This document shows positions 1,651 to 13,600 of a stretch of DNA of 64,000 nucleotides, one piece after another. Location of the stretch: positions 6,324,001-6,388,000 of the forward strand of contig CM074187.1 of assembly GCA_037179385.1 (NCBI GenBank), given 5' to 3'. The position numbers were made by a program, and so were the translations under genes. The notes beneath the pieces are model-generated. The model had not been told where the DNA came from. It made no database searches and saw nothing but the letters and a program-made list of their open reading frames with translations. Each line of letters begins with the position of its first letter. Within the stretch, counting starts at the first letter, position 1. Origin of the DNA: Holothuria scabra. Its lineage: Eukaryota; Echinodermata; Holothuroidea; Aspidochirotida; Holothuriidae.

Positions 1651-4600
1651 GTGACAGATATATGCCCTGCCCTGCCTAGCAGGGGTTAGCTTTCTTGCTA
1701 TGTCTCGCTTGTTTTCAAACCAACGTAGCAAAGACTGCGCACTAAAATCAACTTTTCCTCAATATGAAAACTCTAAGGCGAAAGGTTAAGGTCTGAAAGA
1801 GTATTTGTAGCTTAGAAAAACGATTAATGTGACGTCATCCTACCTATACCTTTTTCAAAGCAATGACAAATAACACATTTTTCTTGTCAGGAGGAGTAGA
1901 ATGGTCTACTTGGAGCACGTGTTCAACAACATGTGGACTGGGAACTCGCTATCGATTTGGTTTCTGCCGGGAAGACTCCAAGTACCTTGACTGTAAAAAC
2001 GGACATACCATCACTGCACAAAGGAAAAGTTGTAAACTAAATAATTGTGAAGGTAGGTACCGGTAACATACGGAGCTTTTAAGGTGTCATGCAGATGTTG
2101 AGATATTATGTGACTTTCTCGACCTTTTGTCAGTAAAATATTTAGATATTGACATCCAAGATCTTTTTATATTAATATTTTAGCATAAAATATTGAATAT
2201 TACATTACATGATCTCAATATTTTAATATCTTCACTGAAATATATTAAGATATTAACATGCAGGATCTCAATATTTTAATATCTTCACTGAAATATATTA
2301 AGGTATTGACATCTGAGATCGTTTTATCTCAATATTTTAGCGTAAATTATTGAAACATTGCATTACAGGATCTCAATACCTTAATATCTTAACTGAAAGA
2401 TAATAAGATGTTGACATCCGAGAACTTTTTATCTCAATATTTTAGCGTAAAATATTGAAATATTACATTAGAGTACCTCAGTATCTCAATATCTTTACTG
2501 AAAGATATTAAGATATTGACATCCGAGATCTTTTCATCTCAATATTTTAGCGTAAAATATTGAAATATTACATTACAGCATCTCAATATCTTAATATCTT
2601 CACTGAGAGATATTAAGATATTGACATCCAACATTATTATTTTAGCGTCTTTCAAGATATCCCAAAACGCGTCCAACTCTTGTCTGCAAGTTGGTGTTAA
2701 TATAAACCAGAGAACTTCAAAATTTTAAAACTCAGTATTCCTTCATCCTGCTCTCATTATTTTTTACTATAAAAGTGTTAAAAAGAGAGACCTTTCTCAA
2801 GAACAATTATTGATGGGAGAACATTACATAGTAAACGCTTCCAACAATCATCTGATAAGAGGCGTATAGAATCATTTGGGTTTGAGAGGATCAGTGGCAG
2901 TTCCAAGGGGGTACGCCGGGTGCAGCGGCAGGGGGAACGCCCCTCCGTCAGAACCTTTTCCCCTTAGTTGGCCCCACTCTCAGCTCCTGAACTATACCCA
3001 GAGATATGCTAAACCGTCAGAGCTTCCGAGGCTGCGCACACGGACCCAATCAAGGGCCATATGGCGGGACTTTGGACACAACCCGTTAAAACTCGAGCTT
3101 TGCACTCGATTTAGCGTTACGCACAAAATATTGACCCCCCTCCAACACATTCCTTTTTCGTCCATTTCTTCCCTCACTTCCACAACCCTAGTGGAGCCGC
3201 TAAGGCGGGCAACTGCATTTGTTGCTCAAATTTCTTAGCCTTTTCAGAAGACTTTTTACCTTATTTTTGTACCGATTCTACGGAATTTTGGTTTGCCAAA
3301 AAATGTGTTGACAGTCCCACTGCCCATTTTCATACGCGTGTACCAACAATCTCTCGGAGTTATTTATATTCAGATTTTAGGCCAACTTTGTGAAGAATTT
3401 TCCTCTCATTTCAAGCTATATGAAGTGGTCTTAGTTTGTTCAATCCATTCACTTCATAAATCATTTTGATTTAGCTTTGTACTTCTATAATTAGACATAT
3501 CGAAAAGTAGGAGTTTGGAGCTAGTTCGGTTTCAATGAAATTGCACCAGTTATCTTTCAGTATGCTTATCAAGGTCCTGCGGTAGAGTGGATAGTAGGAA
3601 TTGACATTTTGAAAAAAATATGCACAGACAGTAGGGAGGTTCGAGGTCTGATCCCAGGGCTGTGTCAAAGTAAGGTGGGGTTTTCACCAAAGATCACTCT
3701 AAAGGTATTCACATCTAAACTTACCTTCAAAGTTTCACAAGAAAGTTAGATTTAAATTTGATCTAAATTGTAACTTTTGTCTGAAACCCAATTTTAGAGA
3801 TATTTGTGGCTGCTTAGCATAGTCATGTGACCAGTGGCGCCGCCAGACTTTTCGAAGTGGGAGAGGCACTGGGGGGAAAGCTGTCCGCCGGAGGGTCACA
3901 ACAAAATGAAGAGTTGGGCGTCACCGAAGGCTTAGCCACTTAGTGACGAGCAGCACTCCCAGGTGTAGGCGTTAAACCCCAGGGGCCCACTGTAGGGCCC
4001 CTACTGGGGTCCAGGGACAACACTTTATTGTGGGTCCAGGAGTGCAGTCCATGCGGAGGCTCTGGGGTATTTGCAAAAATGTGACCATTAGAATAAAACA
4101 TTTGACAATCTCCAAAATGTCATTGCAGCGCACTAAAACGGGCCACAAAAATTGACATCAGAATTGACCATTGTGTTAGCCTTACTCGCACAAACGGTTT
4201 CATGATGGGGGGGGGGGGGCGGTATGAATGGGGACAGCGACTCATGTTAACGTTTGAACTGAGTTTAAACATAAACCCACTCTTGCTGCATAATAGTTAT
4301 TGATGTTTGATAGCCTTTTTAAATAGTGCCTGTTTACATGTAGCTTCTGTGAATAATTCATTGGTTCCATAGAAACTGGTCAGTTACAGACTATTTCAAG
4401 GCACAATGAAAAGCAACACAAATGTCAAGGTGTAACCATAGTAACACAAATTTATGGATGTGGCGGGACGGGATGGTAACTTTCATGGTAACATGTGACT
4501 AATATTTAATTATTATCAAAAGTAGAGAGATATAAAGGAAAAATTAAAATTGATTATTCTTCTTTTTTATGAAAACAGTCGCATAAATCACATTTCGTTT

Positions 4601-10600: not shown

Positions 10601-13600
10601 TATCTTAATATTTTATTGACAAAAAGTCGAGAAAGTCACATAATATTTCAACATCTGCATGACACCTTAAAAGCTCCGTAGTAACATGCTGTCGTAATAA
10701 GCATTTTATGCTTCACAAAACTTTTTTGTAACACTATTTGAATTTCAGCAACCGAAGAACTACCCTCTTATAGACGAATCCGATCAGCGCTTGTGTTTAG
10801 TGACTGTATGCAGCCATACGTGGGGTCCGTCAACTCTAAATCGTCTTCATTTATTGTCTACATGAATTTCAAACCCTCACATTCAGTGAAATTGAGACCA
10901 ATCAGACCATCACTTGACTGTCCGGATCCGTCTATAGAGTACCGAGTTGATGTCGTCACTTCCTCTAAGTTTCCAAGGCAATGGCTCTACACAAACTTCG
11001 ACCTCATTAGCCTTACGTACTTAACGCAATACCATCAAAAATTGTGATTTTCAATTGTATATATACATAACACCACCGTGGCACAAAGTAAAGCTGATTA
11101 TTTGTCACAATGGCACTCTTACTACCTGTGGAACAATACTATTTTACTAATTTCTTTAAAAATCCCTGCAACTGACGAAAAAAATTAAATTCAGTAATGC
11201 ATAGTCCCCCCTTACAAAGTGAAAGAGACGTATACGTGCAAACATATTGTAGGAAACGATCGTTTTAAACCAGGGAGCTGCTATTAAAACGATGCATGAA
11301 ATGCACCTGTCATTGGCAACAAAAAATGCTCCCTGCTTGGACCAAGTAATAATTACCAGTATGTTCCTAGACGTCTGTCACCCCACATCATTGATTTCAA
11401 TTTTGAGGTTAACTTCAGTCGGTAAAAAATGTTAATGGGTCCATGGTGTATTACACCGAAAGACACCCAATTCTGTGTAAACCTCCCTATACCCGATCTA
11501 CGAAACCATCTTGCACGTTACAATTCGAAAGGTAACAGAATTTAATCCAACCTGAAAAAAATTGTTAAAATACTTCGAATATACATAAAACCATTTATTA
11601 GACTCTCATTTATATTAGAGATTCCATTTCACTGCAATAAATTGAAGAAGTTGAGCCCAATGATAAAGCAATAGGGGGTTTTGTTTGTAAGGAACCCGAC
11701 GCTAAAATAACGTCTCACTTCGTTACTATGTTGCGCTTACAATTTGGGAACTGAATGTGTAATTAGATGGTCTTTATATAGCATAATGAGGGTAAACATA
11801 TATCGGAAAGCTATTTTACCGTAAATGACACAAGTTTTTTCCTCCAGGAGAAATGCAGTGGTCCGATTGGAGCTCATGTAGTCGCACGTGTGGGGAAAAC
11901 TCTGCCAGGACTAGAATGGCGTTCTGTCCCGACGAACGGGCCCACGAAGATTGTATACGGCCCGGACAAGCAGTGATCGAGCGGGAAAGGTGCGATGTGC
12001 CAGCATGCAGTGGTAAGCACTAGGCAGTAACAATTCGATCACTTTGCAGTCTGTGTGAAGGATGGGGAAGGCTTAGGGAGAACAACCAAAATACCCTCGC
12101 GAAGAAAATATCAGGAATACCTCCCAATACATTTTATAAAATACTTAATGTTTATTTACACCGATGGCAAAATTTGTGTATAGAGGAGGGATCTCGTTAC
12201 CATCTTTAAGCTAAAACGACGCTATTACTGTTTTGATGGATTAAGGAAACTGTTTTGGTTTTTGTGAACGCTACATAGGAGCTACTGTGGATTTTTTCTG
12301 GGAAGTCCAGTCAGGGGAAAAGTAGGACCCCTGGGATCTACAAGCAAGGCCCAGTGAGAGGTCCCAAAGCAATCGTAACACAAACACAATAACTTTAGTC
12401 CCGGCTATGATACCCTACGCATAAATAATCTTGGCTTATGATAATGTTGCTATTACGCAAAAGTAATAAAGGTCCGATTACACTACATACTGAACATCGA
12501 AGACGATTTCCTTTGTTCTTGTTCGGGACCCTTGGAACCCGTGGACATTATCCACTTAGTCCCTCCGCCCGTAACGCTGCTGAGTTTAGACTTTCTCATC
12601 AAAACAGTGAAGTGATTGACGGCGCTTTTTATTCCTTCAAAAAAAGTCACCGGTGCACATTACCTCACTGATCACCCACACATAGTGACATCTTAATACA
12701 ATTTTACAAGAATTTGCGGTCACTTATAATTCTTTGATTCACTGACTTTGAAAACCAGGAGAGGCTTAATTTCATGGACTGATAATATAAATGGTCACTT
12801 ACATCCGTCGCTAAACAGCTGTGTGGCTATGTTATGGGTGAGTCACCGAGAGTAGCAAGGAAATGGAAGAGTGTACTGCAGACGGAAGAAAGAGGGTTCC
12901 TTTCGAGGTAACTTGAGGGACTTACAGTTTGTGTTGTACTTCCTTTGTCATCAAACTTGATCAGTAGAGAAGTAGTGGCGACGTGTTTCTTAAAACATTC
13001 GCTGAAAAGGTTTTTTCTTGTCTTCGGTGGTTTAAGCACAGTTCCTGGCCGGATAATTACCAGCTTCAAAAGGCTATAAAACTGGTTGCAAAATTTGAGA
13101 AACTTAAAAAAAATGAAAAATTGAAAGACTTCATATATAAAGATCGAATTCCGAAACTCGTGAATAGTTTTTCAAATTGTGAGGAACACGATTCCTGTAA
13201 CTGTTAGGAAAACTCAAGGTAAGGCTAAAGTTAGGCAAGTTGGCAACCTATAGACTCTACATCTTGAGTGCATATTTTACATCGTTGTAAAAAGCGTTGA
13301 CCCACCTCTTACTGTAAATTTATGCGCAGCTTTACAAAATGACAAATTCATTTACCTTATTTTTGTTTAAAATGGTAGATTGCTTCACACTTTGGAGAAG
13401 TCGATTGTTTTAGCTTTCCTCTACCTCACAAATAATTCAATGTACTCTCGCACCAAATTAAATGAGGCACATGATTTGATTTTACTTTAGAAGTGAGCCA
13501 TTACTTGCGAACAGTGACCTTGGGAGAATTTAATGAAATAAGCCTTCTAACAATGTTCTGACTGGATGAGGTTGGAGGTTTCCTTAAAACAATCAGGTGA

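What the first reader, a model, noticed from the sequence alone, without database searches (positions are those of the whole stretch)
2063..10686. Precisely bounded 8.6-kb foldback transposon with subrepeat-built arms and a 6-bp TSD
The two ~600-bp arms are inverted copies with matching TACGGAGC termini. Both outer edges are bounded by a perfect GTAACA duplication. The arms consist of ~107-bp units that are themselves palindromic, a nested palindrome architecture resembling Drosophila FB/Galileo. The 6-bp duplication is not typical of hAT (8), MULE (9) or piggyBac (TTAA). I recognise no transposase, so this may be an unclassified family.
Basis: seen in the sequence. Interest (0 to 1): 0.8.

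Follow-up and report, generated by a model that had tools for sequence, protein, structure and literature searches.

The report
Non-autonomous IS3EU-like transposon with foldback arms
An 8.6-kb piece of mobile DNA with hairpin-rich mirror-image ends sits in what would otherwise be a tiny intron of an animal gene; its ends and target duplication mark it as a probable gene-less member of a known transposon superfamily (IS3EU), so it is a good example of something largely known rather than a new kind.

Summary
An 8612-bp element (2069-10680) has 33-bp perfect TACGGAGC.../...GCTCCGTA ends, arms of about 570 and 620 bp (84% alike where colinear) and a perfect 6-bp GTAACA duplication. The terminal 16-mer occurs (13/16 or better) only at the two outer ends in 64 kb, and neither arm has an inner end of its own, so two independent insertions are unlikely. 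Correction: the arms consist of two types of ~53-bp half-unit, in the order BAABABABA (left) and BAABAABABA (right), not a single ~107-bp unit. Both arms fold far better than shuffles. The element lies in an intron of a gene with thrombospondin type 1 exons; without it the intron would be 78 bp. 'Unclassified family' is probably wrong: published descriptions of IS3EU (TA..TA or TAYGG..CCRTA ends, TIRs over 30 bp, 6-bp duplications) fit on every point. None of 37 interior ORFs of 60 aa or more matched a Pfam family above its cut-off. Best reading: a non-autonomous IS3EU/GingerRoot element with foldback arms, mobilised in trans. The host-genome search did not complete (11 tries), so copy number and the autonomous partner remain untested.

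The parts
2063..2068 (.). left target site duplication GTAACA
   Evidence: sequence; the only matching flank length of 1-11 bp is 6
2069..2636 (+). left arm: 33-bp perfect terminal repeat, then ~53-bp half-units in the order BAABABABA
   Evidence: unit order from the loop positions; fold z -8.1
2637..10056 (.). interior, about 7.4 kb, GC 0.40 against 0.26-0.28 in the arms, no recognisable coding sequence
   Evidence: GC; Pfam on 37 of 37 ORFs of 60 aa or more overlapping it, none above a curated cut-off; the 40 ORFs of 45-59 aa were not scanned
6180..6492 (.). probable nested 313-bp insert with 13/14-bp inverted ends and 7/8 flanking duplication CTCATTTA/CTCATTAA (hAT-like by TSD length)
   Evidence: no such candidate in any of 5 shuffles
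6877..7160 (.). possible second nested hAT-like insert, CAGTGTCAC...GCCACTG, flanks ATAATAAT/ATAATTAT (7/8); partly similar DNA at 50357-50453
   Evidence: ends and flanks read by eye, not found by the scan; similarity
10057..10680 (-). right arm: inverted copy of the left arm, half-units in the order BAABAABABA (one A more than the left); its first two BAA blocks are 96% alike
   Evidence: (D1); fold z -12.3
10681..10686 (.). right target site duplication GTAACA
1891..2052 (+). host exon with thrombospondin type 1 domain; phase-1 donor GTAGGT at 2053; 5' edge (CAG ending at 1890) judged by eye
   Evidence: PF00090 E 3.6e-6 in 1833-2066
10749..11044 (+). putative next host exon (open frame; its 3' splice site not determined); acceptor TTTCAG ends at 10748
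   Evidence: of three frames only the expected one is open across the joined exons; no Pfam match for this exon

Best explanation
This is one insertion of a non-autonomous DNA transposon of the IS3EU/GingerRoot superfamily whose terminal inverted repeats have grown into foldback-type arms. Shown: the exact ends, the 6-bp duplication, the arms, their hairpin-rich half-units, and no Pfam-recognisable transposase in ORFs of 60 aa or more. Inferred: a DDE transposase supplied in trans by an autonomous relative bound the 33-bp perfect ends, cut the element out and joined it to a target with a 6-bp stagger at GTAACA. The ~53-bp half-units arose by tandem duplication; the right arm differs from the left by one A unit and its two BAA blocks look recently duplicated or homogenised. 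The units may act as extra transposase binding sites, as proposed for Galileo. Later insertions of unrelated small transposons enlarged the interior. The element landed in a 78-bp intron and is presumably removed by splicing.
For: TACGG..CCGTA ends with a 33-bp perfect TIR and a 6-bp TSD. IS3EU: TAYGG..CCRTA, TIRs over 30 bp, 6-bp TSDs in fungal families (PMC12730594, passage); always TA..TA with TSD usually 6 bp (PMC10045372 section 3.3). The TIR 16-mer occurs at 13/16 or better only at the two outer ends in 64 kb. No transposase domain in 37 of 37 interior ORFs of 60 aa or more. The two pairs of right-arm A units 159 bp apart are 100% and 96% identical, against 68-91% for left-to-right A-unit pairs. 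Joined host exons read open in the expected frame.
Against: No second copy and no autonomous partner was seen: the host-genome search failed 11 times; exact scans for the terminal 20-mer found 0 loci in viral contigs and 0 in genome contigs (neither is a collection of animal genomes, and near relatives of the window's genome may be left out). The superfamily assignment rests on ends and TSD length, not on a transposase or on similarity to any named IS3EU family. The TAYGG statement was made for fungal families. The arms are only 84% alike.
Confidence: 0.78

Rival explanations
1. A transposon of another superfamily with 6-bp duplications (hAT6, or a superfamily not yet described) that happens to end in TACGG..CCGTA.
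For: hAT6 families with 6-bp TSDs exist (PMC12730594 passage). No transposase was found here.
Against: The five terminal bases, TIR length and TSD length agree jointly with IS3EU. TAYGG is, as I recall, not a usual hAT terminus (recalled, not tested).
Confidence: 0.14
2. A decayed Polinton/Maverick, which also makes 6-bp duplications and has long TIRs (recalled).
For: TSD length and long TIRs.
Against: Termini are TA..TA; Polinton ends are AG..CT (recalled). No polymerase, integrase, ATPase or protease domain in any of the 37 interior ORFs of 60 aa or more.
Confidence: 0.03
3. Two separate foldback insertions in opposite orientation whose outer flanks match by chance.
For: The arms differ in unit number and are only 84% alike.
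Against: Neither arm has an inner TIR end: best inner matches are 11 of 16 (2300-3300) and 9 of 16 (9500-10500). Only the outer pair has both matching ends and matching flanks. Matching 6-bp flanks have a probability of about 3e-4 from base composition (my arithmetic).
Confidence: 0.03

Closest known systems
IS3EU / GingerRoot superfamily
   Same: TA..TA ends, TAYGG..CCRTA motif, TIR over 30 bp, 6-bp TSD
   Different: No transposase here, and arms of about 600 bp made of hairpin-rich subrepeats. Tandem repeats annotated as IS3EU are on record: two oyster satellites, CgiSat35 (690 bp) and CgiSat47 (129 bp) (PMC8268682 table passage), and half of beetle TCAST10 (PMC5844308 passage); whether those sit in foldback arms was not stated in what I saw
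Galileo (P superfamily) of Drosophila
   Same: Long TIRs, in some subfamilies internally repetitive and differing in repeat number between the two TIRs of a copy; the longest TIRs are in non-autonomous copies (passages)
   Different: 7-bp TSD
Tetris and Tm1 (Mutator/foldback)
   Same: Foldback structure with tandem repeats in the TIRs and no conserved ORF in Tetris (passages)
   Different: 8-10 bp TSD in Tetris; Tm1 seen only in a search listing
Dada
   Same: 6-7 bp TSD (passages)
   Different: No terminal inverted repeats; inserts in small RNA genes
Ginger1/Ginger2
   Same: Integrase-like transposase in the known families
   Different: 4-bp TSD (5 bp in TDD-4/5) and TGTNR ends (passages)

Membership tests
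IS3EU/GingerRoot | 6-bp target site duplication | tested here: met
   GTAACA on both sides, exactly 6 bp; one copy only
IS3EU/GingerRoot | TA..TA termini, more narrowly TAYGG..CCRTA | tested here: met
   TACGG..CCGTA against the descriptions
IS3EU/GingerRoot | TIRs longer than 30 bp (stated for fungal families) | tested here: met
   33 bp perfect, 113 bp at 91%
IS3EU/GingerRoot | IS3EU transposase (integrase-like DDE core), in this or an autonomous partner copy | tested here: inconclusive
   not found in 37 of 37 ORFs of 60 aa or more of this copy; partner not searchable because the genome tool did not complete
IS3EU/GingerRoot | sequence similarity to named families | not testable with these tools
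   no tool offered here holds the Repbase sequences
Galileo (P superfamily) | 7-bp TSD | tested here: not met
   6 bp
Mutator/foldback (Tetris type) | 8-10 bp TSD | tested here: not met
   6 bp
Dada | no TIR, insertion in small RNA genes | tested here: not met
   33-bp perfect TIR; no Rfam match at gathering score in the window
Polinton/Maverick | polymerase, integrase and capsid genes; AG..CT ends (recalled) | tested here: not met
   TA..TA ends; no such domains in the ORFs scanned
hAT6 | hAT transposase with 6-bp TSD | tested here: inconclusive
   TSD length fits; no transposase in the ORFs scanned

The most novel reading that the evidence does not exclude
The foldback architecture (arms built of nested palindromic, tandemly expanding units) arose independently in the IS3EU superfamily, as it did in the P and Mutator superfamilies, and is thus a recurrent outcome for transposons whose transposase tolerates or profits from repeated binding sites. 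The A/B hairpin pair would then be an amplified IS3EU transposase binding site.
Probability: 0.35. Interest if true: 0.45.

Novelty: new member of a known kind. Interest (0 to 1): 0.3.

Why it matters
It ties an apparently orphan foldback element to a named superfamily by its ends and target duplication, and suggests that foldback arms evolve convergently in a further superfamily. It is also a clean case of an 8.6-kb hairpin-rich insertion in what would otherwise be a 78-bp intron.

Tried and rejected
Genome-wide copy search in the window's own assembly: no answer in 11 tries of the same request. Exact 20-mer of the terminus in viral contigs and genome contigs: 0 and 0, as expected for an animal genome. 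Rfam on the window: 0 matches at gathering score. Whole-frame Pfam scan of the interior was not accepted because of stop codons, so ORFs were scanned one by one. GingerRoot paper PMC6839031: not held. Sea-urchin TU elements: the search gave only the Tetris paper. Rejected on TSD length or ends: Galileo, Tetris type, Dada, Ginger1/2, Polinton (the last partly from recall). Introner reading considered (passages of PMC9860276): both splice sites lie outside the element and its duplications (donor 2053, acceptor ending 10748), so the element did not make the intron by itself. The scan for other IS3EU-like elements gave one further pair, 2069 with 4440, TIR match 5 of 16, taken as chance. Of the two 8-bp-TSD candidates in the interior I treat 6180-6492 as probable and leave 5753-5937 open; the two 4-bp-TSD candidates are at the level of shuffles (2, 2, 1, 0, 0).

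Full report
Observation. The element runs from 2069 to 10680 (8612 bp) between two perfect GTAACA copies. Flank comparison from 1 to 11 bp matches at 6 bp only. The first 33 bp of the two ends are perfect inverted copies, 54 of the first 55 bp match, and the 113-bp outer part is 91% complementary. The arms align colinearly at 83.8% over 462 columns; a global alignment of the two needs a gap of about 53 bp in the left arm.

Arms. The left arm shows periods 53, 105 and 158 bp, the right 53 and 159 bp. The half-units are of two types named here by their loops: A (CTTCACTGAAAG; 5 left, 6 right) and B (TTTTAGCGTAAAA; 4 left, 4 right, one of them with 3 mismatches). Read from the ends inwards, their positions give the order BAABABABA on the left and BAABAABABA on the right. 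The arms thus differ by one A unit, and the first two BAA blocks of the right arm are 96% alike over 159 bp (D1); the A units in them are 100% and 96% identical, while left-right A pairs are 68-91%, one right unit being out of register by an indel. Duplication or homogenisation within the right arm is the simplest reading; loss in the left arm is not excluded.

Hairpins. Four pieces of arm folded as DNA gave z of -3.3, -6.3, -6.6 and -4.4 (1, 0, 0 and 0 of 200 shuffles as good). Whole arms gave -8.1 and -12.3 (0 of 40 each), two control stretches of the window +1.0 and +1.0 (33 of 40 each). The strict scan found 4 hairpins in the left arm, 5 in the right and 3 in the 53 kb to the right, so some half-units are no longer good hairpins. 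Loop strings occur by chance elsewhere (A 2 and 2, B 4 and 1 on the two strands of that 53 kb at up to 2 mismatches), but no BLAST match to an arm does in the rest of the window.

One insertion or two. The 16-nt terminus occurs at 13 of 16 or better only at the two outer ends in 64 kb, and the inner arm regions give at best 11 (left) and 9 (right) of 16. Among TAYGG..CCRTA pairs under 15 kb with identical 6-bp flanks there are two, the element (16 of 16) and a chance pair (5 of 16); 100 windows shuffled in 3-base blocks average 0.66 such pairs, the best at 11 of 16. A single insertion is by far the better reading.

Interior. It is richer in GC (0.40) than the arms (0.26-0.28). Of 77 ORFs of 45 aa or more overlapping it, the 37 of 60 aa or more were scanned with Pfam and none matched above a curated cut-off; the best was E 0.074 to a transporter family. 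A badly broken transposase in shorter pieces could have been missed. A 313-bp insert at 6180-6492 has 13/14 inverted ends and a 7/8 match in its 8-bp flanks. A second, at 6877-7160, is read by eye and was not found by the scan; part of it resembles 50357-50453 (79%). An inverted pair at 8140-8240 and 9434-9535 (79%) is unexplained.

Host context. The element lies in an intron of a plus-strand gene with a thrombospondin type 1 exon before it (PF00090) and a like domain further on (11829-12020). EGF-like stretches at about 14856-15062 and 17616-17843 were read by eye and not searched; that all belong to one gene is assumed. Donor GTAGGT is at 2053 and the acceptor ends at 10748. With the element and one duplication removed the intron is 78 bp, and the joined exons are open in the expected frame and in neither other frame. 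The organism was not identified.

Comparison. [quoted passage not shown] A set of fungal IS3EU families generates 6-bp TSDs, has TIRs over 30 bp and ends TAYGG..CCRTA (PMC12730594, passages seen). The element meets each of these. IS3EU and GingerRoot form one lineage with 99% bootstrap. Galileo, Tetris, Dada and Ginger differ in TSD length or ends (passages). Foldback structures are thought to evolve independently from different lineages by loss of transposase and elongation of TIRs (Tetris paper passage, citing Marzo 2008), and tandem repeats in Galileo TIRs hold secondary transposase binding sites (passages). This element fits that account in a further superfamily.

How new. One search for papers holding both IS3EU and foldback gave one paper, where 'foldback' occurs once, in a reference title. 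That is a thin search: 32 papers hold IS3EU and transposon, 20 were listed, and I looked into passages of four of these and a section of one of them; Repbase and most subscription journals are not held. Against novelty, two oyster satellites (CgiSat35, CgiSat47) are annotated DNA/IS3EU, and half of the beetle repeat TCAST10 is 86% similar to an IS3EU transposon, so tandem repeats tied to IS3EU are already on record.

Limits. The decisive test, other copies in the host genome, could not be run. Classification is by ends and duplication, which is how non-autonomous elements are usually placed (recalled practice), and would yield to a transposase.

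Noticed in passing
6180-6492: Probable nested 313-bp hAT-like miniature element with GTGGCGCC near its ends and 7/8 flanking duplication; a stretch similar to its left end lies at 18-53 of the window (87% of 38 columns).
   Followed up: partly
8140-8240 and 9434-9535: Inverted pair of about 100 bp, 79% alike, inside the element; origin unknown.
   Followed up: no
5753-5937, also about 4457, 4633 and 5580: Recurrent GTGGGACGGA / TCCGTCCCGCCAC-like motifs (by eye), with one pair flanked by GAATGTGA duplications: possibly a further decayed nested element.
   Followed up: no
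57414-59315 (-): 633-aa open frame that reads like a LINE reverse transcriptase (by eye, not searched).
   Followed up: no
502-871 and 26745-27185: Tandem arrays of 154-bp and 221-bp units.
   Followed up: no
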